From: Xanthomonas floridensis
Lineage (GTDB): Bacteria > Pseudomonadota > Gammaproteobacteria > Xanthomonadales > Xanthomonadaceae
DNA: 64,000 nucleotides
Reading direction: 5' to 3'
NCBI RefSeq assembly: GCF_001642575.1
Contig: NZ_LXNG01000056.1
Span: 124,001-188,000 of the forward strand
The position numbers and the translations under genes are program-made. A model generated the notes under the pieces. The model saw only the letters and a program-made list of their open reading frames with translations, was not told the origin of the DNA and did not search any database. Every line of letters begins with the position of its first letter. The stretch's first letter is position 1. Shown here in pieces: positions 34,598 to 55,506 of this stretch.

Positions 34598-35914
34598 TTA
34601 TTGCAGGCAGGTGCTCACCGTGTTCTGCACCGAGGTGCGGAATGCGGCAACGCCGTCCAGATACGCAAAGCCGGCCGGCAGCGCCGGACGCGTGGTGCTG
34701 CTGTAGAAGATGCCGAACAGATCCTTCAAGGCCTGCACGTGCGCCGCGCTACCGTTGCCATTGGTGTAGCCGGCCACGTAGGTAATCGCTGCGATCGGGT
34801 AGGCATTGGTGATGGCCGCAGCGGGGTTGACCAGGCGCACGCAGTTCTTGGTGGCCTGCGTTCCGCTACCCGGCGCGGCGTTGACGGTGGCGCCGTCCAG
34901 CACACGACCGCTCAGCAGTGCCGTGGCCGCCAGCGACACCGGCGTGGCGTTCTGGCCGAACAGCGCCGGATCGAAGCCGTTGACCTTGGCGTACCTGGCC
35001 GACTGCAGCAGCACTTCACCGATGTCGGCATAGCCCACTGCGTTGGTGTTGGCACTGGCACGCACGGCAGTGACCACGCCGTTGTTGCCGCTGGCGCCGA
35101 TGCCGCGCGACCCGTACACCGTGCTCACGCCGCCCGGCAGGGCCGCATTGAAGGTCTGGTTCGGGGTGAAGGTGAAGCCGGACGGCACATTGGCGGTGCC
35201 GTTGCAGGTGCGCGCCAGGTAGCTGGTGAACGCAAAGCTGGTGCCGCTGCCATCGGTGCGGTACACGATCTTGATCGGGCCGGTGGCGCCGCTGCCGGAT
35301 ACCAGCGACCAGTCGCTGACCTGGCCGGAGTAGACCTGGCAGACCTGCGCGGAGGTCAGCGCCAGCGCGGTGGTCGCGGTGCTCTGAGCGATTGCGATGG
35401 CGCCGGCGATGGTCGGGATCTGCACCACGCCGACACGGGCGGCGGCATTGCTGCCATTGAGGAAGGCCTGGTAATCGGTGGTGCTGTACGGCGCATCGGT
35501 GCCGATGAAATCCGGTGTGGCCGATGCAGCGCTCAGGCCGGCGGGGGCAACGCTGAAATCATTACAGGCCTGGTTGGCGGCGATGCTGCCGGCCAGGCTG
35601 TTCTTGCCGGTGCCGCTGCCGGTCTGGCAGTAGGACACCTTGTTGCTGTTGGCGCCGGCGCTGTAGGCGGCAAAGATGGATCCGGCGCTGATGCCGGCAA
35701 CCGTGCTGGAACCGCCAGCGGTATTGCCGGCATTGGTGGACAGGCGCGCGTCCGGATTCGGCGTCAGGTAGGCATTGCCGACATACGGCTGGGCCGGGAA
35801 CGTGGCGCCACCACCATACAGATTTTCTGCGGCCATTGCCGGAGCGGCCAGCACGACGAGGGCGGCCGCGAGGGCGGCGGTCAGCGAAACGGGGGATTTG
35901 ATGAAATTACGCAC
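34598..35914 (-). CDS. DING/PstS-like exported phosphate-binding-fold protein
   Basis: Exported protein of 438 residues. A signal peptide ends APAMA, giving a mature start ENLYGGGATFPAQ that resembles the DINGGGATLPQ start of DING proteins. The stretch LTSAQVCQVYSGQVSDWS, then GSGATGPIKIVYRTDGSGTS corresponds closely to the phosphate-binding region of DING/PstS proteins (VCGVFSGRLTDWS, then SSGTTELF, from memory). Start is GTG 35914 behind AGGAGA. Members bind phosphate or act as low-molecular-weight phosphatases (LapA type). It lies just downstream of the FHA-like operon on the same strand, with a Pho-box-like half-site 120 bp upstream, suggesting phosphate-starvation control. Confidence 0.82.
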   Translation of the reverse strand: MRNFIKSPVSLTAALAAALVVLAAPAMAAENLYGGGATFPAQPYVGNAYLTPNPDARLSTNAGNTAGGSSTVAGISAGSIFAAYSAGANSNKVSYCQTGSGTGKNSLAGSIAANQACNDFSVAPAGLSAASATPDFIGTDAPYSTTDYQAFLNGSNAAARVGVVQIPTIAGAIAIAQSTATTALALTSAQVCQVYSGQVSDWSLVSGSGATGPIKIVYRTDGSGTSFAFTSYLARTCNGTANVPSGFTFTPNQTFNAALPGGVSTVYGSRGIGASGNNGVVTAVRASANTNAVGYADIGEVLLQSARYAKVNGFDPALFGQNATPVSLAATALLSGRVLDGATVNAAPGSGTQATKNCVRLVNPAAAITNAYPIAAITYVAGYTNGNGSAAHVQALKDLFGIFYSSTTRPALPAGFAYLDGVAAFRTSVQNTVSTCLQ

Positions 35915-36034
35915 TGCTTTTCTCCTTCATTGGAAAACAGCGGATCGGATGGGTGTATCCGTGCGAGTGAATGCGATGAGTCGCTATCGCAATCACAGGC
36001 TGCGCGCGTTGCATTATGGTGGTGCGACAAATCG

Positions 36035-36052
36035 CGGATTGTTTTATGACGC
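36035..36052 (-). promoter_or_regulatory. Pho-box-like site upstream of the DING gene
   Basis: GCGTCATAAAACAATCCG on the minus strand matches 12 of 18 positions of the enterobacterial Pho box, with the first half (GTCATAAAAC) well conserved and the second poor. It is about 120 bp upstream of the GTG start. A related GTCACAAAA element precedes the transporter gene of the same locus. Confidence 0.35.
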
Positions 36053-36178
36053 CCGGTAAATGCGACATTTCGCGATTTTTATTTACGACCACGTATTATT
36101 TTTTATCAATCTGTCAGATTAACTGCAGCCTCATGTGCAGATATCGCAGTTGCGTGACGAGCACGACCGAGACCATGT

Positions 36179-39100
36179 TTATGGTCCCGGTCGGCACCGC
36201 GGATCGTTGTCGGCGCATTCGCCGAATCCGACCACCTGCACGGTAATCACCGACGGCATGTCATTGACGGTAGGCGGCCGCTTGGCCATGTCGTTTGCTG
36301 CATTGGCCACGGCTGCGGCGGCATTGGATGCACTGCTGAGTGCGCTGGTGTTGACGCTGCGCGTGGTGCCCACGCCCACCGCGTCGCCTTGTACCTGGAT
36401 GTTGTCGGCGTTGGCGACGAATTGCGATGCAACCACCAGATTGCCCGCGACGCGGATACCGGCATCGCCGGCGTCCACGGTGCCGCGCGGTGCGACCAAT
36501 ACCGCGTTGCCACGCGGATCGTCGGCAGTCAGCTGCAGGGTGGCGATACCGGCACCGCTGACCTGGCCGCTGGCATCGAGCATGCAGAACTGGTCCTGGT
36601 CGCACAGGTACCTGGCGCGCGAGCGTTCGGCGCTGGTCTTGCTGCCCTTGCCGGCATTGATGTCACCATTGGAACTCCACACCGTCAGGTCGCCGCCGCG
36701 CTGGGTAAAGATGCGGCTCTGCGCCAACAGCACGTTGGCGTCGGTGAAGATGCCGATAGTGCCGCGTCCCACGGCCAGGATGCCTTGCTGGGCCGGTCCG
36801 ATCAGCACGTTGCCCTGGCCGTCGACGACGGTCGGCGGCGCCAGCACGCTGCCGATCTGCAAGCCGCCGCCCGGGCCGAGCACACGGATGTCGCCGCCGC
36901 GTTCGGTCTGCAGGGTGGAGCCGCGCATGTCCAGCGTGCCGGTTAGGTTGCGCACGCTGGCACCGTTGGCGCCGCCGTCCAGATTGTTGCGCGTGTAGCC
37001 CAGGCGCGAGGGGAACAGCAGGTCGATGGCCGCGTAACCACGCGCATATTTCTGGAAGTCGGCACTGGAGGGCGTGGCATAGCCTTCGCCGACCTGCTTG
37101 AGTACATCCAGGAACACCCGCTCGGTCAGCAATCTGCGCGTTGAGGCCGGCAGTTGCGAAAACGCCTGCCAGGCCTCGGCTGGCGTAGACAACGATGCCG
37201 GTGCCGTAGTGAGCGCACGCTCGGCCGCTGCGATCGACGGCGTGCCTGCTGCCGGCGCGTCGGTAGCGTGCAGGCGGGTGAACGCGAGCAACCACTGCCG
37301 ATAGGTTGCTGTGCTCTGCGCGCTGGCCGGATCCAGGTACTGCCCCGCCAATGCATCGGCATCTTCGCCATTGGCAACGCCATAGCGCACCACCAGATCG
37401 GCGCCGTCGCCGGGCAATGCGGTATTGCTGCGGTTGCCAGTGGTGCGGATGCCGCCGGCGTTGCGATCGTTGAGCAGGCGGGCGCTGAGTGCTTCGTTGG
37501 CCGACGTCAGTGGGCCCAGGTTACGTCCGGCTTCCACTTCGAAGGTGCCCGGGCCGGCCAGTTCCAGCCAGCTCCAGCGCACGACCTCGCCCTGGTCGGG
37601 GCCGCCCTGCACGGGCGTGTAATAGAGGTCGCGCCCGGCCTGTACGCGGGTCACATCGGTCAGGCGATAGTTCTGCGCGCGCAGGTCAAGGTTGACGATA
37701 TCGCCGCCGGCGCGGATGTCGGCCTGCTTGGGCAGTTTCAGTGTCAGCGGATTGACCATGAAGCCATCCAGGGAATAGCCACCCACCAGGTCGCCGTCGC
37801 GGCTGTACACGCGCACCGGTTGCGTATCGTCGCGATGCAGGTTGAGCTTGTCGGTTGCCGCCGCCGCGATGTCTTCGCCGGCATAGGCGCCGGCTTCGTC
37901 GAGCATCGCCAGGTCGAACTTGCGCTTGTCGTTGGTAAAGGTGTTGTCGAACAGGCGGATATCGCCTTGCGCCAGCAGTTGCAGCTGGCCCTGCGCCGAT
38001 GGGAACAGGCGGCCGCTGTTTTCGATCTGGATCGCACCGGCGTGGGCGGTTGCGGACAACTGTGCGGGCAACACGCTGTCGAACACGCCGTCGGTGAGGA
38101 ACACGCTGTCGGTATCGCGCCCGCGGTCGCGCTGGCCGTGGAAGAACAGCAGGCCGGGCAGCTTGAGCGTGCCGAGCCGCAGATCGCCCTGCAGCGTATC
38201 GATGGATACCGACGATGCCTGGCCATAATCGGTGGTGGCGCGCGTGCTGTCGCCCAGCAACGGCCCGATGGTTCCGGACGCGTTGAGATACGACGGATTG
38301 ACGATGGCGCCGAGCGCGGCGTCGCCTCCGGCATGCACCGACCACTGCCCCTCCTGCAAGGCGAGGATGGGATCGATGGCACTGCTCACCTGCCGCTGCG
38401 TGCCGCCGGCATCGAAGCCCTGCGCAGACAGCGAGAACGCACTGCCCAGGCTGCCGCCGGCGCTCAACCTGCCTTGTCCATGGGCAACGAAGTAGTCGCC
38501 GCCCAGGACATCGCGTCCGGCAGCCACGTCAAGGTCGCCACCTGCATAGGTCTGGCGGCCGTCGGCGGTGAGCACGTAGCTGGTGGGCAGCGACACCGAG
38601 AGTTCGCGGATATCGCGCCCGGCCTGCACCGCGACGTCGCCGCCGCTGCTGAGCACGCCCTGCGCAAAACCTCCGTAGTTGATCAGCCCCGCGCGTGGCG
38701 TGGCGCCATCGGCGCCCACCGGGTTGCCGACCTGCAACCACGGCCACCAATACTGGCCGACATAGTTGTCGACCAGGCCAGTACGGCTGCCGTCGCGATC
38801 GTAGATCTGTCGATTGCCGAGGATGTCGCGTCCGGCCTGCAACTGGATATCGCCGGCCGCTTCGGCATTGGCCTGTGCACTGACGATCTGGTCGGCCGCG
38901 CGGCTCACGCTGCCGCCGGACTGGGGATCGCCGCTGCGCACGAAGGTGACATTGGTGCCGACCTCGCTGCCGGCGGCCGGGCGGCCCGCGCTGTAGATGC
39001 TGGCCGGTGCGTCCGCATCGGCCAGTTGCAGATCGCGCGCCGCGGCGATGAGGATGCTGCCAGTGCCGGTGCGCACCACATTCGGTAACAACAGGTCCTT

Positions 39101-42100
39101 GCTGTCCGCCTGCCGATAGCGCTGGTGGCCGTCCAGCACCACATCCGCCGTGCTGCCGGTCCGCAGGCCATCGGGGCGAATGCCGGCAAAGTCGGCGCCG
39201 GCCACGATGCGGTAGCTGCTGCTGTCGCCGCCGATCAAGCTGGTAGTGGCAATGGGCAACGGGTTGTTCGCATTGACCTGCAACGATGGCGTGTTCTGCG
39301 TGGCTGCCGGCAACAGGGCCCCCAGCACCGGTAGCGAGGGAGGAGTGAAGGTGGGCAGCGGATACTCGCCCAGCGCGGTGTAGAACGCCGACAGATCGAG
39401 CACATAGCGTTCGTAGTTGCGCAGATACTGCGGGTAGTCCGCCGGCGAGGTCGGTGCGCCGGGCGCGATCGGCTGGCCAGGATAGTCCTGCACCGGCCAC
39501 GCAAGATCGGGCGAGTAATTGCCGATGAAGCCACCCAGCAAGGTGTCGTACGGGGGCAGGGAGCTGGACAACTCCGCTTGTGGCTTCTGCAGCATGTCGA
39601 GCAGTTGCAGGTACTGACCGTAGTATTGCGCGGCCTGTTCCTGGTCGCCGCCCAGGCTGCTCGGTGGCGCCGGCACCAGCCCATCCAACGAAGCGAACAG
39701 CTGGTCCTGGCCGAAGGCCAGCACCGCCTGGTAACCGGCTTGCGCGGTGGGGTAGGTGGCCTGCGGGCCGCCGCCGCCGAACGGGTTGCTGAGCTGGTAG
39801 AACCCATCGCTGAGGCTGGCCTTGATGATCACGCCGGAATCGGCGCGCAGGCTGACCACCGGCGCGGTGCCGTTGTAACGGAAATCCAGCTGATTGCGGT
39901 TTGCGCCGGCGCCCAGGTTCCAGCTGCTCAGCACGCGGATTTCGCCGCCGTTGATGCCGGGATCGGGATTGCGCAATTCGATGCCGGGGCGCGCACGCAG
40001 ATTGGGCACCGTGGCCAGGCGTTGCTCGAAGCGGAAGCCCGGGCGCTGCACGAAGCCCATCAAGGTGCCGGGCGTAGCCGCCGCATCGTCGGCATAGCCA
40101 TAGAACTGCCGATGCGTGAGGTTCGCGCTATCGGGGGTGAACACGTAGCGGCTCAGGTAGTCGGCAATCTGCGCCGGGGTAGTGGGCGCCGTCGCCACCG
40201 GGTTGCCGGCCAGATCCGACCAGCTGCCGGCCAGCAGGTTGCCCTGCGCGTCGTACCAGCCGGCTGGGTCGACGATGCCATCGAAATGCTTGGCCGGATC
40301 GCTGCTGGCATCGGTGGTGCTCCATACCGCGTATGCCTCCAGGCCGACCTCGCGTGCGCCACGGATGCTGGCGCCATCGGCGACGATCACGTTGACCTCC
40401 CCATCGTTCAACAGTGGCGTGCGCAGTTGCACATCACCGCCGGACAAGCCACCCGCACTGCCACCGGAAACGTCCAGGACGGCGGCAGCGCCGATGGCGA
40501 TGCTGCCGGCCGCTGCGGCCTGCACATTCTGGTAGCCGAAGTCGGGATTGAGCGTGCCGTCGGCCATGCCGCTGCTACCCAGCTGGATGCTGCCGCCACG
40601 CTTGTCGGCAGCACTGCCACGCGCCAGCAGCTGGCCGTTGATTTCCACGCCGTGCCGCCCCCACAGCGCGATGCTGCCGCCCTGGCTGCCAGATGCATCG
40701 ATGCGCCCGTCGATGCGCACAGTGCCGTTCTGCGCATCGCGGCTGGCCGCTGCCGCGCCGCCGTCGGCGGTGAGGCTGACACGTGCGGCGCGCAGCGTGC
40801 GGTTGGCCGACAGCACCAGGTTGCCGCTGCGCGCATGCACATCCACGCTGCCGGTGAATCCGCCAGCCGCCAGTTGCAAGGACAGCGGATCCAGCGCCAC
40901 CGCAGCGCCCGAATCCAGCGTGAAACGGCCACCTTGGCCCTGCGCGGCACCTCCGTCGATGGCACCTGCCAGGCTGATGCTGCCCTGGGTGGCCGAGAGC
41001 GCGAGCGCACCTGCATTGGCGGCGCCGCTGGCGCGCACATCCAACCGCGTGGAGGCGTCGGCACTGACATCGCCTTGCACGGCATCGAGCGTGATGCTGC
41101 CGCCCGGCGTTGCCTGCACCCGATCAAAGAACACGTTCGCGATGCCGGCGGCATCCAGGTTGGCGCCGTCGTGCAGGCGCACGCCGGCTTGCGTGCCGCG
41201 CAGATGGATGGCGCCGGAGTTGGCGCGGATCAGCGCCGTGCTGTCGATGCTGCCGCCTTGCAGGGTGATCCGGCCACCCAGCGCACCCGCACCCGCGATG
41301 TTGCCTGCGGTGCGTTGCAGACGCAGGGCGCCTTGCGTGATCAGCACCTGGTCGGCACCGGCATCGGCCTGCAGCAGTGGCGCGCGTAGGTCCACATCCA
41401 CAGTGCCGAAATCGAACTGGCCGCGGTCGCGCACCAGCACCTGTTGCGTGGCATCCACCGCCACCGCACTGAAACCGGCCAGGTGTTTCTCGCCGCCGGC
41501 AAAAGCAACTTCGCGGCCTTGCAGGTGCAGCAGACCGCTGCCGGCAAGCGTGTCGCCCGCGCCCGCGCCAGCCGCTGCTGCGCCCAGGTTGGACAAGGTC
41601 AAACGGTCCGCACGCAAGCCCACATCGCGGCCGTCGCCGACAAAACGCGTGGCGCTGAGCGTCAGGGCATTGTCCACGCGCAGGTCCAGTCCACCGGCAA
41701 AGCGCATGTCGCCATAACTGTGCAGGCTGATGTCCCTGGCCTGCGCGAACTGCGCAAGGCTGGCCAGGCCGAGCACCAGCCCGTCGGCGTCGCTGTTGGC
41801 GGCCTGGGCATCCAGCCGTATCTCACCGGCGCTGGCGTCGATCCGTTCGCCGCGCAGCACCGCACCGGCGGCAATGGCGCTGGCGCCGGTGGAATCCAGG
41901 GTCAGTGCCGCGCCGCCGTCCAGCTGCGCACCATTGCCGATCTGCAACATGGCGTGCGACTGCGCTGCGTCCGGCACGTTGGCGCGCTGCACGCTCGCTG
42001 CGCCAACGCTGGACAGCCGCAGCAACGCGCCGTCGCCGCTTTCCCCGCCCACACTGCCGAACAGCAAAGGCGCGCCGGCACGGGTGCCGCTGCCGCCCTG

Positions 42101-45100: not shown

Positions 45101-48100
45101 TCCGCCAATCTGCACGCCATAGGCACGCAAGCTCAGCGTGCCACCGCCGGCAAAACTGTCTGCGTGCAGGCTGGCCGGGTCGAACTGCAGTCGGCCGGCG
45201 TTGTCGGCTACCGGCAGGTCTGCGGTGTAGGTCGGCGATGCGGCGTTGTCGCCGGGGGGGCGCTGGTAGGTGTGCAGGGCGATGTCACCGCCCTGGCCGA
45301 GCGGGCGGCCATGGCGCAAGGTGAGCGTGCCATCGGGCGCGACATAACCGCCGCCGGAGGCATCCAGCACCACACCGGGCGCGATCAGCAGCGAGGCGCT
45401 GACGTCGCGCCCGGTGGGGTTGTCGGCGTCGCCCAGCGCCTGTTGCAAGGCATCGAGGGTGATGCTGCCGCCATCGACGAAAGCGCGCCCCACCGGGTCC
45501 AGCGTCATCCGCCGATCGTCGTTGACCCAGCGCCCGCTCACGTCCAGGCGTGCGGTGCTACCGAGCAGCAGGTCGCCGCGTTCCGGCACCTCGACGGCTC
45601 CCGGTCGCCAATCCTGCGGCCTGACCACGCCACCGCTGCTCTGCACCGCGATCGTGCCGGCGCGCGCGCTCAGGCCACCGTCGATCTCCACGCGCTGTCC
45701 CTGCAAGGCGATGCGGCCACCATCGGTGACCTGCAGCTGCGCGTCCGCATCGACCGCAATCACCGGGGCATTGCCGATGCTCACGTTGTGCAGGCCGCTG
45801 CCGTCGAGCATGCGGGTGGACAGTTGCGACCAGAACAACGGGTTGTCGCGTTGCTGCGCGGTGCCTGCGCTCCCGGGCAGCGCGGCGCTGGGCGTGTCGA
45901 GCTGCAGCCCCTGCGGCATCTCGATCGCAGTGCTCACGATCTGCCAGCTGCGCGGATCGCGCGGCGTGCCGTTGGTCTGCCCAAGCGTTGCGTTGTACAG
46001 CGCGGAATCGCTGTTGATGCTCAGCGTGCCGCCTTGCGGCATCTGGCCGTCGCTGCGTTGGTAACGCCCGGCGATTGCCTGCGCCGAGATGCTGCCGCCC
46101 AGTACCACCAGGCCGGAGCTATTCAATTCGCGCCCCAGCGCGATGTTCAGGGCGCCGCCATTGCCGCCTTGCAGATAGTCGCTCTCGAAGTAACGCCGGC
46201 TGCCCAGTAGCGGATTGGCGAACTGCTCGGTCACGCCCCAGCGGCTGTGTTGCACCGACTGGCTACCGGCGATGCCGAGATACCGCAGGTTGGGATCGGC
46301 GCTGGCCAGATCGTGCAGGCGTCCATCGGCGCCGAGTAGGCGCGCGGTCTCGACCATGCCGCCCTGCGTCTGCACATAGCCGCCGTCCAGATCCAGCTGC
46401 GCGCCGGGTGCAATCACCAGGTCGCGTGCGGCGATCGTGATAGTGCCGCCGTCCTGCAGCAGTTCATCGATCGCACGCGGTACCTGGTCCACATAGCCCT
46501 GGGCATTGAGCAGCGGGCTGCCCACCCAGGCCTGTCCATCCTCGCGCACGCCACTGACGCGGCGGTCGAACTGCAGCGATTGGCGGAACAGCACGCCATT
46601 GCGCTGCAGCGGCGCATCGGCCAGCTCGTTCAAGCCAACGCGGGGAATACGCACCAGATTGTCCTGCATGCGCTGCTGCACATTGGCGATACCCGATACA
46701 CTGACCTGCGCGCCGCTGTCGATCATCAAGCGATTGTTGAGCGCGCTGCGGCCGCGCAGATTGACCTGGCCGGTCTCCGCGGCCAGGCTGAGCATGTCCA
46801 GCGTCCCGCCGGGAGCGAAGGTCAACGATTGCGATTGCAGCTGCATCTGCGCACCGGCCAGCACCATCTTCGGGCCGACGAAGGCAAGATCGGAGGCAGC
46901 GCTGGAGGTGGTGGTTTCGCCATCGAGCTCGGGCAGGGCAGTGGTGACCGAGCCGGGCGCCAGGGTCAGGCCGCCCCCCTTGTAGCCGGCAAGCGTGTTG
47001 TCGCCGATCTGGTTGTCCTGGCCAAGCGCCAGCAGCATCACGCTGCCGGGGCGGCTGATGCTGGTTGTGGCCTGCACCAGCCCGCGCTGTTGCACGTTGT
47101 AGCCAACCAGGCTTGCATTGCCGCGGGTGGCCACCACGCTACCGCTGTTATCCAGCGTGCCGACGCCGGACAGGTCCGAACCGCTGGGCGTGACGAACGC
47201 GCCAAACCCCAGCGGGGCAATCGAGCCGCTGCTGCCGAGCAATTGCTGCAGCTCCTGCGATTGCCGCAAGCCCAGCACGGCAGCCAGCAGCGCCTGGCCA
47301 TCCTGCGCGCTGACGCTGCCGGCGTTGCTGACGTTGGGCGCGGCGATCAGGGTATACCCCTGGCTGCCGCTGGCTAGGCGTGCGCCGGATTCGATCCGGA
47401 TATCGCCAGGCACACTGCCGGCACTGACTGCATCGATGCCGGTCAACACCACGCCGCTCTGGCCGGCGGCACCGAACAAACCGCGATTGAGGAAGGTCTG
47501 ATCGCTGAGCGCACGATTGGGGTCGAACAGATCCAGCGAAGACACCAGCAGTGAATGCGCATTGACCTGGCTGCCGGCACCGAACAGCACGCCGTTGCGG
47601 TTGAGCAGATACACCTGTCCCGGCGCCTGGATGCTGCCGAGGATCCTGCTCGGCGCGGCGCCGGGGTCATTGACCCGATTCAGGGCGATCCACTGCGCGG
47701 CATCGCTGCCACCGGCCGACTGATCGAAACGCAGCTGGGTGCGGCTGCCGACGTTGAAGGTTTCCCAGTTGAGGATGGCTTTTTTCTGGGTCTGGGTGAC
47801 GGTGACCTGGGTGGTGCCGTCGCTGAGCTGTTGCGTTGGCGCCCTGGCGCCCAGCCAGATGTTGCGCTGGCCCAGGCGCCGATCGCCGGCGCTCACGCTG
47901 CCCGGGTCGACCTGCAGGTTGTCCGGTAACTGCAGGCCGCCGCGCACCAGACCGTCCGGCACCGCGGAGGCCTGCGCCACCGCGGCCGCCGCACGTGCTG
48001 CCGCCTGGGTCGCATCCAGTGCCTGGCGTGCCTGCGCGGCACGCCGGAATGCCTGCAGGGATTTTTGCGCCAGCTGGCCCGCAGCCGCGGCCTGTACGCC

Positions 48101-48256: not shown

Positions 48257-48280
48257 GACGGCATCCTGGGAACGTGCGTG

Positions 48281-48634
48281 TCAGCGCACGGGCGCAAAAG
48301 GAATGGGATAGCGCGGCGCCGGCGGGCGCTGCGGCTGCAGTGAGTGGCCATAGGCCTGGCCGTAGCGCTGGCGCAGCGCAGCCGGCGTGGACTGGCCCAG
48401 CTGCAGCGCGGAGCCGTTCGCCGGCGTGGTGATGGCGGCAGGCGCTCCGGTGCTGCGTTCGACGCTCTCGCGCAGCAGCTGGTTCAAACACGACAGCCGC
48501 CCACTGGTGCTCTGGCCGATACGGACTTCCACGCAGGGCGCGGCATCGGTCACCACCGGCGGCGTGCGCGCCGGCGCTGCCAGGCTGCTGGACGCAGCAA
48601 CCAGTAACGCGAACGTGGGCAGCGTGGGTGTCAT
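48281..48634 (-). CDS. Small exported protein of the TPS operon
   Basis: Exported protein of 117 residues with a signal peptide (PTFALLVAASSSLAAP) and no family I recognise. The mature part contains CVEVRIGQSTSGRLSCLNQL (two cysteines, possible disulfide) and a Pro/Arg/Gln-rich tail. Start ATG 48634 overlaps the stop of the coiled-coil gene by four bases, and only 24 bp separate it from the giant TpsA gene, so it belongs to the secretion operon and may help TpsA folding or export (inferred). Confidence 0.8.
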   Translation of the reverse strand: MTPTLPTFALLVAASSSLAAPARTPPVVTDAAPCVEVRIGQSTSGRLSCLNQLLRESVERSTGAPAAITTPANGSALQLGQSTPAALRQRYGQAYGHSLQPQRPPAPRYPIPFAPVR

Positions 48635-49290
48635 GGGGCGGCAGCGCTCTGCGGCACGGGCGGGGCATTGCCATCCAGGCAACCGCGCAACCGGGTGTGC
48701 TGTGCCTGAAGCTGGCTTTCCAGAAGATGCACGCGGTTCTCGCGCGTCACCCGCGCCATGCCGAACAACTCGCGGCCACGGCCGCGCACGAAGCGCACGA
48801 AGGCCGGGTCGCGATATAGCCCGGCCAGCTCGCGCCCGCTGGCGTACAACGCATCGGAATCGCCACTGCAGCGGCTCAGCCGTTCATGCAGCTGCGTGCG
48901 TTCGGCCGCCATGGCCTGTTGCTGCTGATGCTGCTGTTGCGCCAACGCGGTTTGTTGCGCGCTAGCCTGTTGCGCATGCCGGGCGCGTTCTGCCGCCAGT
49001 GTCTGGCGCTGCTGCTCCAGTTCGCGCTGCAAGGCCGCGATGCGTGCGCCGTCATCGTGCACCGGCGCGGCAGGCGCGGCAGGCGCGGCCTGGCGTGCGG
49101 CATCGCGTTCGCGCTGTGCCGCGGCGGTTGCCAGCTGTTGCTGGGCCAGATCGGCCTCGGCCTGGCGTAACCTGGCGCTGGTCTGGCGCAGGGCATCGCG
49201 CAGCCGCGCCTCGTTGGCGTTCTGCGCCAGCGCCGGCAGCGCGGCAAACCACAGCGCTCCGATCGCAAGCAGGGGGCGGCAGGCGCGCAT
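48631..49290 (-). CDS. Periplasmic coiled-coil protein of the TPS operon
   Basis: Exported protein of 219 residues. A signal peptide (ACRPLLAIGALWFAALPALA) is followed by a long Gln/Ala/Arg-rich coiled coil (about 25-140) and a more conserved C-terminal part (DALYASGRELAGLYRDPAFV, then RFVRGRGRELFGM). ATG 49290 has GGAG nine bases upstream; a TTG six bases earlier is less likely. It is two bases from the porin gene stop. A periplasmic chaperone or scaffold for the exoprotein is a reasonable guess; I know no direct homologue with a function. Confidence 0.82.
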   Translation of the reverse strand: MRACRPLLAIGALWFAALPALAQNANEARLRDALRQTSARLRQAEADLAQQQLATAAAQRERDAARQAAPAAPAAPVHDDGARIAALQRELEQQRQTLAAERARHAQQASAQQTALAQQQHQQQQAMAAERTQLHERLSRCSGDSDALYASGRELAGLYRDPAFVRFVRGRGRELFGMARVTRENRVHLLESQLQAQHTRLRGCLDGNAPPVPQSAAAP

Positions 49291-49292
49291 GC

Positions 49293-50987
49293 TCAAAACT
49301 CCGCGCTCAGGTCCAGCTGCAGCACATCCACCGCATACGGTGGGCCGGAGACCTCATTGGCGCTCAGCCAGCGTAGCGACAGCCAGGTATTGCGCGCCAG
49401 CCCGTAGGCGCCGCCCAGGATCATGCCGCGCGCATTGGTGCCGCCCATATGGAAGTCGGAGTCGGCAAACGCGTCCGGCACCGCATCCGATTCCAGGTAG
49501 CGGTAACCGAGCGTGGCATTCCATTGCCCGGCTTCGGTGACACGCGGCTGGCCCACCAGCAGGTTCAACAGGTAGCCATGATCGCCGCCGTCGAACACGC
49601 CGCCATCGCCCAGGTTGTTGACCGGCCCGAGCGAGCGCACCCGTGCGGCGTTGTAGCGGGTGTTCTTGACCACGTCCGCTTCGATCAGCAGCTTGACCGG
49701 ATCGAACTGCGCCAGCTCCAGCTGCGCATGCAGGTTGGCCACGCCGAACTTGCTGGCATACCCGTAGTACTGCAGCTGCGGCCCACCGGGGTTGGCCGGG
49801 TCAGCGACGATGGTGCGGAGCGGTACCAGCGTATTGCCGAACTGCTGGAACTGCGGGCGCGAGCCATCGCCGTCGCAGCTGTCGTTGCCGGACGGCGCCA
49901 GGCAGGGCGTGGAGCGCTTGCCTTCGAACTGGTCGTACTGGAAGTAGCTCATCGCCATCCGCAGCGACACCGCATCGCTCAGCCGCAACAGCCCGCCCAC
50001 TTCGGCGCCGTACAACCATTTGTCGCGGCTGCGTGTCTTGAGCGTATTGGTCGAACCGAAATCCAGGTCGGTGTTGTAGACCGGGAACACACCCGCGCTC
50101 AGATACGGCGCAAACGCCGCATTCGGCGCAAATGCATAGCGGCCCGCGATGCCATCGAAATTGATGTCTTCATCGAACACCAGTTCGCTGCTCCAGAACG
50201 GGTTGGCGAAGCGGCCGAACGACAGGTCCAGGTCACGCGTGGGTGTGAGCACCAGGGCTGCACGGTCCAGCCAGATCGGCTCCTTGGCCAGATTGCCGCC
50301 GCCACCCAGGGTCTGGTTGGTCGATACCGGGCCGCGGTCGGCGCCGGTGACCACGCGGATGTCGCCGGTGATCCAGTCGGCGATCTGCGCCTGCACGCCC
50401 AGGCGCGCGCGAATGCGCATGCGGCTGCGGTTGCGCGAGGTATTGAGGAATGGTGCGTTGCCGGTGCCGACCACGTCGAAGCCGTTGCCGGCGTTGATCT
50501 CGGTAAAGTCCGGAAAGAATCCGTAGTTGTCGTCCGGGTAGAAGATGCCTTCGCCACGCAGGCGCAGGTCGCCGTAGAGCCGCAGCCGCTGAGTCCATTC
50601 CGGCAGCGCACCCGGCGTGGCCCAGCCTTCGCGTTTGGCTTGGGCGGTCACCTCGGTCCGCAGCTCATCCTTGATCTGCTCGCGTACGGTTTCCGGCACA
50701 TACGGCACCACGATGGCGCCGGGTTGGGTCTGATACGGCAGCTTGCCTGCTGCCGGCGCGGCATCGGCAGTGGCACTGGCTTCCTGGATCATCGCGTCGG
50801 CCTGCTCGCGCGTCAGCACGCCCTTGGCAACCAATAGATCGATCAGCCGCAAGGTCACCTGCGGACTGATGCGCGATGCATCCACCGTGCTGGTGCCCTG
50901 TGCAGCGCACAGGGTGGGGGCGGCCATCAGTGCGCATAGAGACAGCGCGAGCCGGGTGAAACGGACGGAGTGGGACAGGGCAATCAT
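49293..50987 (-). CDS. Outer-membrane porin (putative porin family)
   Basis: Outer-membrane beta-barrel of 564 residues. A signal peptide (ALSLCALMAAPTLCAAQ) precedes a short helical segment with LRLIDLLVAKGVLTREQADA (30-65), then a barrel with alternating strands (RLRLYGDLRLRGEG, RMRIRARLGVQAQI, LDLSFGRFANPFWSSELVFD), ending in LDLSAEF with a terminal Phe. It resembles the Porin_5 putative porin family. ATG 50987 follows AGGAAA. Its place between TonB and the periplasmic helper genes suggests a role in the same system, for example nutrient uptake or as a second outer-membrane component. Confidence 0.85.
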   Translation of the reverse strand: MIALSHSVRFTRLALSLCALMAAPTLCAAQGTSTVDASRISPQVTLRLIDLLVAKGVLTREQADAMIQEASATADAAPAAGKLPYQTQPGAIVVPYVPETVREQIKDELRTEVTAQAKREGWATPGALPEWTQRLRLYGDLRLRGEGIFYPDDNYGFFPDFTEINAGNGFDVVGTGNAPFLNTSRNRSRMRIRARLGVQAQIADWITGDIRVVTGADRGPVSTNQTLGGGGNLAKEPIWLDRAALVLTPTRDLDLSFGRFANPFWSSELVFDEDINFDGIAGRYAFAPNAAFAPYLSAGVFPVYNTDLDFGSTNTLKTRSRDKWLYGAEVGGLLRLSDAVSLRMAMSYFQYDQFEGKRSTPCLAPSGNDSCDGDGSRPQFQQFGNTLVPLRTIVADPANPGGPQLQYYGYASKFGVANLHAQLELAQFDPVKLLIEADVVKNTRYNAARVRSLGPVNNLGDGGVFDGGDHGYLLNLLVGQPRVTEAGQWNATLGYRYLESDAVPDAFADSDFHMGGTNARGMILGGAYGLARNTWLSLRWLSANEVSGPPYAVDVLQLDLSAEF

Positions 50988-51012
50988 GCGGGTTTCCTGA
51001 AAGGGAAGAACG

Positions 51013-51705
51013 TCAGCCCGGTGCCAGCGCGCCGATGCGCAGCTGGATCGGTTGCGGTAGATCGGCCGGCGGCGGTTGCGGCAATGGCTGGTTCTGCAAT
51101 GCGCGTGCGATGGCAGCGTCCAGCTCGGGCTTGCCGGCCGAGGCAACGATCTGCGTGCGCGCGATGCTGCCGTCGCTGTTGAGCCACACCGCCACGGTGG
51201 CGCGGTAGCGGCCCTTGCGGGTCTTCTCGTCGCGCTGCAACAGCAGTTGCACGGCGCGCTGCACCGACGCTGCATACGCCGCGAACGGGCTGCCCCCGCC
51301 ACCACCACCACCGATGCGGGTGCCGCCGCCAGTGCCAGCCTGCAGGCCGAACGGGTTGTCGCCCGGTCCGGCCGCGGCGGTCAGCGGATCGCCGGGCGGC
51401 GCTTCCGACGGTTTGGGCGGTGATGGATCCGGTGCCGCCATCGGCTTGTCGAGCATGCGCGGCTGCGGCTTGGGAGGCTCCGGTTCCGGCTTGGGCGGCG
51501 GTGGCGGTGGGGGAGGTGGTGGCGGCAGCGTCACGTGGGTGATGCGCGGCGGCTGGCTGCGCGCCATCGTCGGTGCCGATGGCCGCAGTGCCACCGCCAA
51601 CAGCCAGCCAAGCAACGCCAGCACGGCCAGCACGATGGCGCCCTTGCGCCAGCGGCCGACACCGGTGGTCTCCTGCAAGGGGTGGCCTGGATCCAGAGAT
51701 TGCAT
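51013..51705 (-). CDS. tonB: TonB-like energy transducer
   Basis: TonB-type protein of 230 residues: one N-terminal membrane helix (GAIVLAVLALLGWLLAVAL, about 22-41), a Pro-rich periplasmic rod (a run of prolines then PKPEPEPPKPQP) and a C-terminal TonB domain (AVWLNSDGSIARTQIVASAG, then KPELDAAIARAL). ATG 51705 is nine bases from the exbD stop. It would couple the proton-motive force, via ExbB and ExbD, to an outer-membrane partner; in this operon the candidates are the porin or the FhaC-type transporter. A poly-Gly stretch separates rod and C-domain. Confidence 0.88.
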   Translation of the reverse strand: MQSLDPGHPLQETTGVGRWRKGAIVLAVLALLGWLLAVALRPSAPTMARSQPPRITHVTLPPPPPPPPPPPKPEPEPPKPQPRMLDKPMAAPDPSPPKPSEAPPGDPLTAAAGPGDNPFGLQAGTGGGTRIGGGGGGGSPFAAYAASVQRAVQLLLQRDEKTRKGRYRATVAVWLNSDGSIARTQIVASAGKPELDAAIARALQNQPLPQPPPADLPQPIQLRIGALAPG

Positions 51706-51714
51706 CGCGTGCGC

Positions 51715-52119
51715 TCAGCCCGCCGCCTGGCGCTGCGACGCCAGACCGATCGACCCAATCCCCAGCTTGCTGCATAGATCCAGCACCGCCATGATCTTTT
51801 CGTACTGCACGCTGCGATCGCCGCGCAGGATCACCGGCAGTTCGGCATCGTTGGCCACCGCATTGCGCAGCTGCTGCTCCAGCTCGTCCATGCTGACCGG
51901 CACCGCATCCAGGCTGACCTGCCCGTTGGTGTCGATGGCGATCACCTTGGTCTTGGGCTCGGACAGCGGCTTGGCTGCGCTGGCCTTGGGCAGGTCCACC
52001 TTGATGCCCTGGACCGCAGCGGTGGTCATGATGATGAAGATCACCAACAGCACGTAAGCCAGATCCAGCATCGGCGTGATGTTGATGTCGTCGTACGGTT
52101 TGCGCCCTTGCACTTTCAT
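51715..52119 (-). CDS. exbD: ExbD/TolR-family biopolymer transport protein
   Basis: Protein of 134 residues with a single N-terminal membrane helix (INITPMLDLAYVLLVIFIIM) carrying the conserved Asp in TPMLDLA that conducts protons, and a periplasmic ExbD domain (VDLPKASAAKPLSEPKTKVI, ILRGDRSVQYEKIMAVLDLC). ATG 52119 follows GAGG and is four bases after the ExbB stop. It works with the upstream ExbB fusion as the motor for the TonB protein encoded next. Confidence 0.92.
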   Translation of the reverse strand: MKVQGRKPYDDINITPMLDLAYVLLVIFIIMTTAAVQGIKVDLPKASAAKPLSEPKTKVIAIDTNGQVSLDAVPVSMDELEQQLRNAVANDAELPVILRGDRSVQYEKIMAVLDLCSKLGIGSIGLASQRQAAG

Positions 52120-52123
52120 CGGG

Positions 52124-53902
52124 TCAGCCTCCGGGCACGCGTGCAGGCGCGTCGCCGGCATAGTCCTCGGCGATGCGCTTTTCCAACTCGTCGACAAACA
52201 CCTGCATGTCGGCCGCGACTGCATCGGCCTGGCTGAGCAGGTAGTTGTAGCCAAACAGGGCCGGGATGGCGACGGCAAGACCGGCCACGGTGGCGAGCAA
52301 GGCGGCGGCAATGCCCGGCGCGATCGCGTTGATGTTGACGTCGCCGGCTGCCGCCACTGCCGCAAAGGTGATCATCACCCCGACCACCGTGCCCAGCAAG
52401 CCTAGGAACGGGCCACCGGAGATGGCGATGGTCAGCAGCACCATGCCCTTGTGGATGCGCTGTCCTTCGCGCACCACTGCTGCATCCAGCGCCGACCGGA
52501 TGGCCGCGATCGACTGCGTGCGCACGAACGCGTTGCCGCTGGCAGCCAGACGCCCACGCAGCTCTTCCAGACCGATGTGCAGCAGCCGCGCCAGATTGGA
52601 CCTAGCACCATTCAACGGCCCGCCGGCATGCAACTCCTGCCAGCTCGGTGCATGCAGCGGCTGCTGCGCCACCTGCTGGCGAAATGCGCCGAGAAAGCGC
52701 GCGTTCGCCGACGCGGTGGCATTGAGGTACAACCCCTTGCTGATCATCACCCACCAGCTGATCAACGCCATGACCGCCAGGATGCCGATCACCGCCCAGG
52801 CATCGGGCGTCAACGCATTGAGCAGGATGCCGAAGTAGCCATGGCCGCCTTCGCCGGCACGCTGCTCTACCGGCTCGAAAGTCAACAACCGCGCATCCAC
52901 GCCCTGGCTGCGTGCAGCCGCTTCGATCGCACTGGTCGGGCGGGCGACCTTGCTGAGTTCCACTTCGTCAAGCAGGCCGATGAAGTTCGGCCGCAGCGCA
53001 CCGGGCTCGCCGCCCAGCATCAGGCCGGCGGTGGCCGCCGGCACGCTGCCTGCAGCCTCACCCACCGTCTTGCCGTTGAGGTAGAGCGTCAGCTGCTTGC
53101 CGTCGGCGCGTACGGCAACGTGCGCCCAGGCATCGCCGCCAAGCGGCGCGCTGCTGGCCACACGCAGGCCGCCGGGGGAGTCGACCACCACGCTGCCGTT
53201 GTCGAGCAGTACGCTGAGCGCACCGGGCAGGGCAAACAGCACGCCGGAGGCATTGGCTGTTGCCGGCTTGATCCATCCCGACAGCGTGAACGCCCCGTTC
53301 GCAGGCAGGCTGAGCGAGGTCGAGGCGGGCGCGCTGACCGGCGCGGCGCCATCCAGCCGCAGTCCGCCGCCGATCAGCGCGGTATCGGCCAGCACCAGGG
53401 GCGCGGCCAGGTTGTTGGCGTAGCCGGTGGCGTCCTGGCCTGCGGCCTGCGCATCGGCAAAGTGGTACACCGCCAGCGTGTCGGCGTCGTAGCTGTTCTT
53501 GGCATCCTGGCCGGTGCCGGCCTCCGGATTGCCGAAGTACACGAACAGCGGCGTTGCGGCATTGGCCGGCAACGTCGGCAGGTCCACCCATGCCAGTGCG
53601 ACCTGGTCGACCAGCCCATCGTATTTTTCGAAGTGGTACTTCAGCGGCGTACGGTCGTCACCGGCAATGAAGCGCACATCGCTGCCATCGGGCTTGGCAT
53701 CGGCAAAATTGAAGTTGCCCGAATGCAGGCGCACCAACACCTGCACCCGTCCCGGTGCCTGCGTCACCGCAGCACCGGTGGAGGTGGTATTGAGCGCGAT
53801 CTTGGCGCGGAAGTTCCACTTGGCATCCCACCACGACGCCGCTATCGCAGGCAGCGCGGCCAACATCAAACCTACGAAGACATATAACCGTAATCTGCTC
53901 AC
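52124..53902 (-). CDS. DUF2341/LamG ectodomain fused to ExbB/TolQ proton channel
   Basis: Unusual fusion of 592 residues. After a signal peptide (VFVGLMLAALPAIAA), residues about 24-130 resemble DUF2341 (WWDAKWNFRAKIALN, VALAWVDLPTLPANAATPLF, VYFGNPEAG) and about 140-330 form a LamG/concanavalin-like domain (GAFTLSGWIKPATANASGVL, GLLDEVELSKVARP). The C-terminal 240 residues are an ExbB/MotA-TolQ channel with helices at AVIGILAVMALISWWVMI, SGGPFLGLLGTVVGVMITFA and IAAALLATVAGLAVAIPALF. The ectodomain would face the periplasm. GTG 53902 is the start. It lies 35 bases after the transporter gene and four before exbD. Confidence 0.9.
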   Translation of the reverse strand: MSRLRLYVFVGLMLAALPAIAASWWDAKWNFRAKIALNTTSTGAAVTQAPGRVQVLVRLHSGNFNFADAKPDGSDVRFIAGDDRTPLKYHFEKYDGLVDQVALAWVDLPTLPANAATPLFVYFGNPEAGTGQDAKNSYDADTLAVYHFADAQAAGQDATGYANNLAAPLVLADTALIGGGLRLDGAAPVSAPASTSLSLPANGAFTLSGWIKPATANASGVLFALPGALSVLLDNGSVVVDSPGGLRVASSAPLGGDAWAHVAVRADGKQLTLYLNGKTVGEAAGSVPAATAGLMLGGEPGALRPNFIGLLDEVELSKVARPTSAIEAAARSQGVDARLLTFEPVEQRAGEGGHGYFGILLNALTPDAWAVIGILAVMALISWWVMISKGLYLNATASANARFLGAFRQQVAQQPLHAPSWQELHAGGPLNGARSNLARLLHIGLEELRGRLAASGNAFVRTQSIAAIRSALDAAVVREGQRIHKGMVLLTIAISGGPFLGLLGTVVGVMITFAAVAAAGDVNINAIAPGIAAALLATVAGLAVAIPALFGYNYLLSQADAVAADMQVFVDELEKRIAEDYAGDAPARVPGG

Positions 53903-53937
53903 GATCTAACCCCGTTGAAAAGTGGAATGCGTTCCGC

Positions 53938-55506
53938 CTAGAACTCGCCCCAGAGGCGAAACAGCACGTTGATGTCGTCCGATTTCTGCCCGTCCGGGCT
54001 GGAGAGCGGCGCTGCGATATCCAGCGTGCCGTTCAGATGCGCAAAGGCCTTCACCGTGAATCCCACCCCGGTGCTGACCAGGGTTTCACTGATGCGCTGT
54101 TCGGGCAGGGGGGCGCGAATACGCGCGTAGCCGCCATCGACGAAGGCATACGCGCGCGCTTCTTGCACCAAACCGGCGGCAGCCGATTGAAACGAAGGGC
54201 TGCGCAGCTCCAGCTGCGCGGCGGCACCAACATCGCCAAGCGCCTGGCTTTCGTCGTAGCCACGCACGCTATCCAGGCCACCGAGACTGAATTGCTCGTT
54301 GCTGATCAGCGGCTCGGCCGCCAGCTGCGTCTGCACATGCGCGTACAGCTGATAGTCCTGGCCAAGCGTGCGCGTCTGCGCTGCGTCCACGCGCAGATGC
54401 ATGAAGTTGGGTTTGGCCTGGTAGCGCTTGGCATCGAACTGCGCTGCATCATCGCCAACCCCGCGCAGGTTGGCCGTTGCGGTGAGGGTCAGGGTGCTGG
54501 TGCTGCGTGGCCGCACCCAGCTGCCGTTGTAGGCCGCACTGAGCGGGGCATACTTGATCGGTGCCGAGCTGCGGTCGCTGCCGAACAGTGTGTCTTCCTT
54601 GAAATTCTTGTAGTCCACGCCAAGGCTCAGCGAGTGGAAGAACCCCTCCCGGTTGGCGAGCGCACGGATCAGGCGCAGGCCCGACAGCGAGCCGTTGCCG
54701 ATCACGTTGTAGTTGTTGATCGCCGCCACTTCGCTGTCGCTACGCACGCTATAGCCCAGCACCGAAAACGGCGATTGGGCGAAGCGGGCCAGATAGGACG
54801 CCGAGTACACCCGTGCGTCATCAGGATGCTGGGGTGCGGTCTGCGCCGAAAAATTGAAGCTGTGACCGCGCTGCCACAGGTTGTCGTAATGCACCGCTGC
54901 ACTTAGGCGCAGCTCCGAGGTATTGGCGCTCTTGCGATTATTGAGTTCCAGTGAGCCGTGCAGCGGCAGCGTGTCGTCGACATTGAGGTCCACATCCACC
55001 GTGTTCGGGCGCGCACCGGCCTGGACCTGCGGAGTGACACGCCGGTCGGGTAACTGATTCAGCGCCACGATGTCGCGCTGCACATCCTTGAAGTTGGGCA
55101 CGCCACCCTCGGCCAAGGACGGCGCGCCGGCAATCACGTCGTCGGGCGAGTAGTACTCCGCACCCACCACGCGCACCTGCCCGACACGCTGTTCGCTGAC
55201 CTGCAAGGTGATCAGGCCACTGGCGGCATCCTGCTCGGGAATGCTGACAGCCACCGTCGCCAGGCCTGCGGTTTCATACAGGCTCTGCAAGGCCGCACGT
55301 GCGCCCTCCACATCGGCAGCACTGCGCTGCGGCCCAAGAAATGGATAGACCGCCCGCTCGATCTTCCCGGCTTGCAACTGCGTATTACCCAGCACCTGGT
55401 ACGCCATGATGTCAAAACGCACCACCGATGCTTCCGGCTGTGCGGCAGAGGCGTGAGGAACGCCAGATGCCAGCAAGCCGAACACCGCGATACTTCGCAA
55501 ATCCAT
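53938..55506 (-). CDS. FhaC/ShlB-type two-partner secretion transporter (TpsB)
   Basis: Outer-membrane transporter of 522 residues that should export the TpsA encoded 5.7 kb downstream. A signal peptide (RSIAVFGLLASGVPHASAAQ) precedes two POTRA-like domains (AYQVLGNTQLQAGKIERAVY, VRVVGAEYYSPDDVIAG), then an Omp85-superfamily barrel with the conserved loop motif in EQFSLGGLDSVRGYDESQ (VRGY), ending FRLWGEF. ATG 55506 starts the signal peptide; the longer frame upstream is unsupported. It is the first gene of the operon, with a Pho-box-like element about 80 bp upstream. Confidence 0.92.
   Translation of the reverse strand: MDLRSIAVFGLLASGVPHASAAQPEASVVRFDIMAYQVLGNTQLQAGKIERAVYPFLGPQRSAADVEGARAALQSLYETAGLATVAVSIPEQDAASGLITLQVSEQRVGQVRVVGAEYYSPDDVIAGAPSLAEGGVPNFKDVQRDIVALNQLPDRRVTPQVQAGARPNTVDVDLNVDDTLPLHGSLELNNRKSANTSELRLSAAVHYDNLWQRGHSFNFSAQTAPQHPDDARVYSASYLARFAQSPFSVLGYSVRSDSEVAAINNYNVIGNGSLSGLRLIRALANREGFFHSLSLGVDYKNFKEDTLFGSDRSSAPIKYAPLSAAYNGSWVRPRSTSTLTLTATANLRGVGDDAAQFDAKRYQAKPNFMHLRVDAAQTRTLGQDYQLYAHVQTQLAAEPLISNEQFSLGGLDSVRGYDESQALGDVGAAAQLELRSPSFQSAAAGLVQEARAYAFVDGGYARIRAPLPEQRISETLVSTGVGFTVKAFAHLNGTLDIAAPLSSPDGQKSDDINVLFRLWGEF

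What the first reader, a model, noticed from the sequence alone, without database searches (positions are those of the whole stretch)
34598..55506. Two-partner secretion operon fused to a dedicated TonB-ExbB-ExbD module and a DING protein
Eight minus-strand genes with gaps of -4 to 35 bp encode an FhaC-type transporter, an ExbB fusion, ExbD, TonB, a porin, two small periplasmic proteins and a 4025-residue FHA-like passenger. A DING/PstS-like protein follows. TPS secretion is normally considered energy-independent, so a co-encoded TonB motor is unexpected. From established knowledge, P. aeruginosa has a related grouping (PdtA/PdtB, ExbB2/ExbD2, DING-type LapA/LapB) under phosphate-starvation control. 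The TonB, porin and coiled-coil components here look like an expanded version. Energised secretion, surface release or receptor gating are inferred possibilities.
Basis: partly seen in the sequence, partly recalled or inferred. Interest (0 to 1): 0.8.

Follow-up and report, generated by a model that had tools for sequence, protein, structure and literature searches.

The report
TonB-linked two-partner secretion gene cluster
This is an intact example of a widespread but poorly understood bacterial gene cluster that joins a giant surface-protein secretion system to its own proton-powered TonB motor; a related cluster is known in Pseudomonas aeruginosa, and the giant protein ends in a conserved tail that could be what the motor grips.

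Summary
In detail: eight packed minus-strand genes (gaps -4 to 35 bp) encode TpsB, a DUF2341-LamG-ExbB fusion, ExbD, TonB, a Porin_5 barrel, a coiled-coil protein, a small secreted protein and a 4025-residue TpsA; a DING-like gene lies 264 bp on. The 'expanded version' reading is wrong: published PAO1 already has tonB4, a putative porin (PA0696) and PA0697, transcribed with pdtB. This is a new member of that Pdt kind. Three results go further. (1) The module tracks this TPS type: of 369 class genomes, 23 have DUF3739 TpsA and all 23 have full-length Porin_5; of 101 with other TPS only, 1 does. (2) TpsA ends in a conserved strand-like motif (V-E/D-V-L-G-F-G) after a disordered linker: 87 of 97 distinct tails, 0.2 in shuffles. 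(3) TpsB mostly lacks the plug helix and linker before POTRA1 (16 of 19 measured). No TonB-dependent receptor was found in the cluster. I think TonB acts on the TPS pair itself, most likely the TpsA tail. Coupling is well supported; energised secretion or release is inferred and untested.

The parts
53938..55506 (-). tpsB (FhaC/ShlB-type outer membrane transporter; mature protein begins almost directly at POTRA1, no H1 plug helix or linker evident)
   Evidence: POTRA_2 E 8.2e-13, ShlB E 8.1e-28; aligns to CdiB 6wim with query residue 31 at chain residue 54; N-terminus read by eye
52124..53902 (-). exbB fusion: signal peptide (by eye), DUF2341 and Laminin_G_3 region, then ExbB/TolQ channel
   Evidence: DUF2341 2.6e-12, Laminin_G_3 9.7e-17, MotA_ExbB 1.5e-26; solved TolQ/ExbB relatives match within residues 341-577
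51715..52119 (-). exbD
   Evidence: ExbD/TolR E 1.7e-28; start read from translation
51013..51705 (-). tonB (proline-rich linker, TonB_2 C-terminal domain; relatives share an LGLDA.G.AG.D.FGL.A.KGGR-like stretch)
   Evidence: TonB_2 E 1.2e-12; alignment of 18 relatives
49293..50990 (-). Porin_5 outer membrane barrel with N-terminal helical region; 16 long strands counted in the model, no plug domain seen
   Evidence: Porin_5 E 1.1e-179; AlphaFold model mean pLDDT 78.9; Foldseek best OmpM1 (TM 0.43 by query, 0.74 by target), then AlgE, chitoporin, DcaP and general porins
48631..49296 (-). coiled-coil secreted protein, same position as PA0697
   Evidence: weak below-cut-off match only; homologues found in three loci
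48281..48634 (-). small secreted protein, no family
   Evidence: no Pfam or NCBIfam match; matches in two other loci, one of them an antisense frame
36179..48256 (-). tpsA, 4025 aa, FHA-like passenger
   Evidence: TPS domain 3.5e-18, DUF3739 9.4e-34
47135..47839 (-). TPS secretion domain of TpsA (residues 140-374)
36368..36697 (-). DUF3739 (residues 3854-3963), in the confidently predicted strand-rich part of the model
36221..36250 (-). conserved TpsA tail motif VITVQVVGFG (residues 4003-4012)
   Evidence: in the low-confidence end of the model
36194..36217 (-). cysteine pair C-x6-C after the tail motif (residues 4014 and 4021), candidate anchor
34598..35914 (-). DING-type phosphate-binding protein gene, separated from tpsA by 264 bp
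   Evidence: PBP_like_2 7.9e-21; best solved relatives are DING and phosphate-binding proteins
36024..36073 (-). two exact GCGAWWTGTCGC palindromes in front of the DING-like gene, function unknown

Best explanation
This is a Pdt-type two-partner secretion locus: a surface-fibre exporter built together with its own proton-driven TonB-ExbB-ExbD motor. Shown here: the gene set is complete, conserved, and tied to DUF3739 TpsA rather than to TPS systems in general; TpsA carries a conserved tail motif in a disordered end; its TpsB mostly lacks the usual plug helix and linker; no TonB-dependent receptor was found among the cluster's proteins. Inferred: TpsA passes through TpsB and stays held by its C-terminus, with the tail exposed in the periplasm; the TonB C-terminal domain binds that tail strand (or the unplugged TpsB) and uses proton-motive force to finish export, to hold, or to release the fibre. 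The DUF2341/LamG domain of the ExbB fusion, the coiled-coil protein and the porin are accessory envelope parts.
For: Co-occurrence: of 369 genomes, DUF3739 is over cut-off in 23 (a 24th, G223, is below it); full-length Porin_5 (E<1e-100) in those 23 plus G104, a fragmented genome; a DUF2341 frame of ExbB size in 21 of the 23 and in two others, G104 and G354 (Fisher p 1e-35 and 7e-30, no correction for phylogeny; 16 families). Of 101 genomes with a TPS domain but no DUF3739, only G104 has Porin_5 or the ExbB-size frame. In 20 of 23 the DUF2341 frame is on the same contig within about 25 kb (coordinates). Tail motif in 87 of 97 distinct tails versus mean 0.2 (max 2) in 200 shuffles and 14 of 4185 windows elsewhere in the proteins; it lies in the low-confidence end of the model, as a binding motif would. 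Two or more cysteines follow it in 42 of 95 anchored tails, recalling the disulfide anchors of HMW1/HxuA (PMC5422565, passages). TpsB has about 33 or fewer mature residues before POTRA1 in 16 of 19 measured, against 53 in CdiB.
Against: No physical or genetic evidence that TonB touches TpsA or TpsB. The tail motif is not a canonical TonB box (box consensus recalled). The tail could instead bind TpsB POTRA domains or another partner. TPS translocation can run in vitro without external energy (PMC5422565, passages). Ten of 51 loci with enough downstream sequence show none of exbB, exbD, tonB or porin on that strand there. Three of 19 TpsB have long N-termini, and a third TpsB-like protein of the own genome, L180, has only about 35 residues before POTRA with no evident charged helix, so a short N-terminus is not unique to this family. 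The own genome has five other MotA_ExbB hits, so other motors exist. In PAO1, insertion mutants in tpsA, tpsB, the tonB homologue and PA0696 kept VreI-induced virulence in zebrafish (PMC2729926, passages).
Confidence: 0.45

Rival explanations
1. Nutrient capture: TpsA is a surface fibre that captures or processes a phosphate-containing substrate, which enters through the porin; TonB drives uptake, not secretion (compare HxuA feeding HxuC).
For: DING/PstS-like genes adjoin tpsA in the four long-TpsA loci examined: window, G274 (two), Burkholderia arboris (two), Methylosinus C49 (one, a PBP_like_2 protein only weakly like the window's); type II secretion genes lie near in Methylosinus and Aquabacterium; PdtA, PA0696 and PA0698 of P. 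aeruginosa rise in low phosphate (PMC9769906, passages); HxuA/HxuB/HxuC precedent (PMC5422565, passages).
Against: The porin model is an unplugged barrel resembling general porins, not a TonB-dependent receptor. Beside the shorter TpsA a window-like DING protein turned up only in G107, weakly and far off, within the stretches fetched.
Confidence: 0.25
2. TonB gates or clears TpsB alone: because the transporter lacks its plug helix, TonB controls the pore, and the TpsA tail merely anchors the fibre in TpsB.
For: Missing H1/linker in most TpsB of the family; the linker is needed for FhaC activity (PMC5422565, passages).
Against: No conserved TonB-box-like segment seen by eye at the TpsB N-terminus.
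Confidence: 0.15
3. Only co-regulation: the genes share a phosphate-starvation/PUMA3 regulon and the TonB system serves unrelated receptors.
For: In PAO1 all lie in the VreI/PhoB regulon (passages); FecR and ECF genes adjoin in Methylosinus.
Against: Near-perfect co-occurrence across 16 families, and in this window no vre genes among the ORFs scanned.
Confidence: 0.1

Closest known systems
P. aeruginosa PAO1 PUMA3/Pdt locus (pdtA, phdA, pdtB, exbB2, exbD2, tonB4, PA0696-PA0701)
   Same: TpsA, TpsB, ExbB, ExbD, TonB, putative porin and a PA0697-like secreted protein; tpsB with exb/tonB/porin on one transcript (PMC4971064, PMC7035377, PMC2729926; passages)
   Different: Window has tpsA downstream in the same run, no phdA, no YbjN or PpiC gene within the run, and no vreAIR or hxc genes among the window ORFs scanned. 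PAO1 protein sequences were not compared here.
Classical TPS: FHA/FhaC, HMW1, CdrA/CdrB, CdiA/CdiB
   Same: TPS-domain passenger and POTRA-barrel transporter; a C-terminal cysteine pair as in HMW1/HxuA
   Different: No co-encoded TonB motor there (recalled); [quoted passage not shown] DUF3739 and the tail motif mark this family
H. influenzae HxuCBA
   Same: TPS fibre beside a TonB-linked process
   Different: HxuC is a TonB-dependent receptor; here a motor is encoded and no receptor was found
TonB-ExbB-ExbD and Tol-Pal motors
   Same: ExbB, ExbD, TonB families
   Different: ExbB carries N-terminal DUF2341 and LamG; partner unknown. DUF2341 on ExbB-like subunits is noted as of unknown function (PMC12505986, passages)

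Membership tests
Two-partner (type Vb) secretion | TpsA with N-terminal TPS domain | tested here: met
   PF05860 3.5e-18
Two-partner (type Vb) secretion | TpsB with POTRA domains and ShlB/FhaC barrel | tested here: met
   CdiB 6wim match
Two-partner (type Vb) secretion | H1 plug helix and linker before POTRA1 (predicted in most TpsB; not defining) | tested here: not met
   about 10 mature residues in the window TpsB, by eye, no signal-peptide program
Two-partner (type Vb) secretion | secretion of TpsA by TpsB | not testable with these tools
   needs experiment
Pdt/PUMA3-type locus | tpsB linked to exbB, exbD, tonB, PA0696-type porin and PA0697-type protein | tested here: met
   published gene list; by gene order and family, not by alignment to PAO1
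Pdt/PUMA3-type locus | vreAIR regulators and hxc type II genes next to it | tested here: not met
   none among the window ORFs scanned; the rest of the genome was not searched for them
Pdt/PUMA3-type locus | PhoB boxes at promoters | tested here: inconclusive
   no excess in window; single candidates in L027 and L174
TonB-ExbB-ExbD motor | MotA_ExbB channel, ExbD/TolR, TonB C-terminal domain | tested here: met
TonB-dependent transporter system | receptor with plug in the cluster | tested here: not met
   no plug or receptor family among the nine proteins; porin model shows none
DING proteins | closest to DING phosphate-binding structures | tested here: met
   the seven best entries are named DING, phosphate-binding protein or alkaline phosphatase (two bear the name DING: 2q9t, 3w9v); entries named PstS score lower
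DING proteins | literal DINGGG N-terminus (motif recalled) | tested here: not met
   presumed mature start reads AENLYGGGATFP

The most novel reading that the evidence does not exclude
A TonB-energised branch of type V secretion: the TonB C-terminal domain captures a conserved strand at the C-terminus of the passenger and uses proton-motive force to pull, lock or release a giant surface fibre, taking the place of the plug helix that ordinary TpsB proteins use.
Probability: 0.3. Interest if true: 0.88.

Novelty: new member of a known kind. Interest (0 to 1): 0.56.

Why it matters
Type V secretion is described as running without a hydrolysable energy source or gradient (PMC5422565, passages). 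Here one widespread TPS branch is tied to a proton-driven motor for which no receptor was found in the cluster, and the passenger's conserved tail gives a concrete site with which to ask whether that motor drives, holds or releases a secreted protein. The PAO1 motor (exbB2-exbD2-tonB4) is called still uncharacterised in print (PMC7035377, passages).

Tried and rejected
Expanded-operon reading: rejected, PAO1 has the same parts.

Pho boxes in the window: no excess (27 found, 39.8 expected; 1 found, 3.9 expected). A weak match 220 bp before tpsB is not claimed.

The GCGAWWTGTCGC palindrome as a shared operator: two exact copies before the DING-like gene; before tpsB only a copy with two mismatches; 25 matches with up to two mismatches against 30.9 expected. 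Of 180 loci, three besides the window's own hold one exact copy each. Left unexplained.

Promoter-like sites: none found in 48200-56300 or 34300-36400; terminator-like sites 3 (4.8 expected) and 4 (2.1 expected).

Porin as a TonB-dependent receptor: the model shows a barrel of 16 long strands without a plug like general porins. Foldseek of the TpsA C-terminus gave no match with E<=0.001; its weak best hits are hemolysin A. No PDB sequence relative for the porin at E<=1 or its profile at E<=0.1, nor for the TonB at E<=0.1.

Tail pattern: a first, narrower pattern found 56 of 80 loci; I widened it after seeing the misses, so the 87 of 97 comes from a fitted pattern; the shuffles and the other windows were scored with that same pattern.

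Apparent tonB-like frames in L161 by my profile had no Pfam match and are discounted.

Literature: searches for TPS with ExbB, TonB, DUF3739, DUF2341, PA069x, cysteine hook; in the listings and passages seen I met no test of TonB in TPS export and no description of the tail motif. DUF3739 gave no paper. Faure et al. 2013 and 2014, known to me only from citations in those passages, were not looked up.

Limits: the 80 named loci are the best of at least 527 and lean to Methylococcales because the query led with such a genome. Fisher tests ignore phylogeny. The Porin_5 limit of 1e-100 was set after seeing the list; the values jump from 1e-140 to 1e-34, and 54 of 369 genomes have some match at 0.001. 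ExbB size was judged by open-frame length 560-760 aa, not by a channel match in each genome. Signal-peptide cuts were heuristic. TonB and the tail could not be docked: the structure tool takes one chain.
Full report
What is there. Translations and family scans give, on the minus strand, TpsB, a DUF2341-LamG-ExbB fusion, ExbD, TonB, Porin_5, a coiled-coil secreted protein, a small secreted protein and a 4025-residue TpsA with a TPS domain and C-terminal DUF3739. Gaps are 35, 4, 9, 22, -4, -4 and 24 bp. The DING-like gene follows after 264 bp. Its best solved relatives are DING and phosphate-binding proteins, but the literal DING start is not present.

What it is. PAO1 has pdtA, phdA, pdtB, exbB2, exbD2, tonB4, PA0696 (putative porin) and PA0697 (predicted signal peptide), in the VreI regulon (PMC2729926 and PMC7035377, passages), and one promoter transcribes phdA, pdtB, exbB2D2, tonB4 and PA0696-PA0701 (PMC4971064, passages). 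PMC2729926 also reports TPS, ExbBD and PA0696 homologues with PUMA3 in P. fluorescens Pf5 and Pf01, P. entomophila, B. vietnamiensis, R. palustris and Janthinobacterium (passages). The window is therefore another member of this kind and not an expansion of it. No vre or hxc genes are among the window ORFs scanned. PAO1 proteins themselves were not in the collections that I could search by name.

How tight the link is. I searched 369 genomes of the class, apparently the same draw each time (same handles). DUF3739 matches 24 and is over cut-off in 23. Full-length Porin_5 (E<1e-100) is in 24, namely those 23 and G104, an 85%-complete assembly. DUF2341 is in 30, of which 23 have a frame of 560-760 aa: 21 of the DUF3739 genomes, G104 and G354. 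The TPS domain is in 122. Of the 101 TPS genomes without DUF3739, one (G104) has the porin or the ExbB-size frame. In 20 of the 23 DUF3739 genomes the DUF2341 frame lies on the same contig within about 25 kb; in G310 it is on another contig, in G101 the only DUF2341 hit is in a 1632-aa frame on another contig, and in G200 there is none. The commonest order is tpsB, tpsA, exbB, exbD, tonB, porin. A genome scan returned 80 named loci of at least 527 relatives; 51 have 7 kb or more after tpsA, and of these 37 have all four of exbB, exbD, tonB and porin there, 4 have some, 10 none; the other 29 could not be judged. Two of the ten are explained: L092 has the porin on the other strand at its edge, and L142 has the length of the G314 contig, where exbB lies 16 kb upstream. 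The other eight are open. Plasmid records show the same set in Klebsiella, Methylosinus, Aquabacterium and Burkholderia; 13 plasmid records match the ExbB fusion, 11 over at least 80%. Methylosinus C49 has nearly the PAO1 package: secretin GspD, a PBP_like_2 protein, TpsA, YbjN, PpiC, a hypothetical, porin, TonB, ExbD, ExbB, TpsB, FecR, ECF sigma and an STN protein.

The TpsA tail. DUF3739 TpsA nearly always end in a low-complexity linker and then a short hydrophobic stretch, consensus about L-S-x-L-S-V-[ED]-V-L-G-F-G-[ED]. I took 100 proteins (79 of the 80 loci and 21 of the 24 genomes; L150, G101 cut by contig ends, G070 a fragment and G223 below cut-off were dropped), giving 97 distinct tails. 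Of these 95 could be anchored and 88 have G-[FYLH]-G; a stricter pattern occurs in 87 within the last 70 residues, where shuffled tails give 0.2 on average and at most 2, and the same pattern occurs in 14 of 4185 windows elsewhere. A first, narrower pattern had found 56 of 80. L137 and L171 lack the motif's end. Tails end within 3 residues of the motif in 25 of 95; 42 of 95 carry two or more cysteines after it, the window with C-x6-C. In the AlphaFold model of the last 400 residues (64 sequences, mean pLDDT 78.5) the confident strand-rich part ends near residue 335, and residues 341-400 are low-confidence (block means 44-62) with no strand assigned; the motif is at 378-387. A conserved motif in a disordered end suggests a binding site. 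HMW1 and HxuA hold their C-termini in the TpsB pore by a disulfide loop (PMC5422565, passages); CdrA by a cysteine hook (PMC7616799, passages). Retention of TpsA with its end in the periplasm is thus plausible by analogy.

The transporter. [quoted passage not shown] In CdiB POTRA1 aligns from chain residue 54. In this family 16 of 19 measured TpsB have about 33 or fewer mature residues before POTRA1, three have 53, 79 and 94; two of the 21, the window's among them, escaped the pattern but look short by eye. Eight more from the named loci look short by eye; two of these (L142, L155) appear to be the contigs of G314 and G213, so six are new. In the window's own genome two other TpsB (L176, L177) have long charged N-termini, a third (L180) has about 35 residues without an evident charged helix, and L179 was not interpretable. 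So the short N-terminus is typical of the family but not unique to it.

The partner problem. TonB normally acts on an outer membrane receptor with a plug (recalled). None was found among the nine proteins scanned. The porin model has 16 long strands and resembles OmpM1, AlgE, DcaP and general porins. That leaves TpsA's tail or TpsB as the likeliest partner within the cluster. The tail is not a canonical TonB box, so this is inference. The genome has five further MotA_ExbB hits, so other motors exist in the cell.

Mechanism offered. TonB-ExbB-ExbD, with a LamG-like domain on ExbB, acts on the TPS pair: it binds the tail strand of a TpsA whose end is held in an unplugged TpsB and helps finish, hold or release the fibre. 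Shown: gene content, linkage, specificity for DUF3739 TPS, tail conservation, reduced TpsB N-terminus. Inferred: retention, TonB binding, work done. Against it: TPS can run without external energy in vitro, and PAO1 insertions in tpsA, tpsB, the tonB homologue and PA0696 did not change VreI-induced virulence in zebrafish. The main rival is nutrient capture linked to phosphate, favoured by DING/PstS-like neighbours in the four long-TpsA loci examined (window 4025 aa, G274 4185, B. arboris 4277, Methylosinus about 4130) and by low-phosphate induction in P. aeruginosa (PMC9769906, passages).

Regulation. The window itself shows no excess of Pho-box-like sites. In relative G274 a site with two mismatches lies about 80-95 bp before the tpsB frame (frame position), and in Methylosinus two sites lie about 70 bp before the two sigma-factor genes (gene positions); total counts there are near chance (8 against 4.3, 17 of 200 shuffles as high; 6 against 4.1, 24 of 100 as high).

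Verdict. Real, conserved, already known as a kind in P. aeruginosa, with an untested and interesting physical idea made sharper by the tail motif and the missing plug.

Noticed in passing
window 12509-22708 (+): A 3399-residue frame with 24 PATR repeats and an ESPR extended signal peptide: a second giant type V-like protein; a subtilase autotransporter lies on the other strand at 22980-25838.
   Followed up: no
window 36024-36035 and 36062-36073 (-): Two exact GCGAWWTGTCGC palindromes 38 bp apart before the DING-like gene, the only exact copies in the window; a site with two mismatches lies at 55563-55574 before tpsB.
   Followed up: partly
L172 3584-5250: The tpsB frame of a Klebsiella pneumoniae plasmid is split into two open frames, so that copy looks broken.
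   Followed up: no
tails of tpsA in L173, L174, L172, L003, L161: Some TpsA tails, mainly of the long class, go on after the GFG motif; in L172, L173, L003 and L161 a second segment around G-Y or Y-D and, in three of them, L-G-x-G recurs.
   Followed up: no
window 51013-51705: TonB of this family has a conserved stretch like LGLDA.G.AG.D.FGL.A.KGGR before its C-terminal domain; its role is unknown.
   Followed up: no
L161 12353-12736: A homologue (E 1.7e-11) of the window's small secreted protein lies downstream of a Bradyrhizobium tpsA.
   Followed up: no
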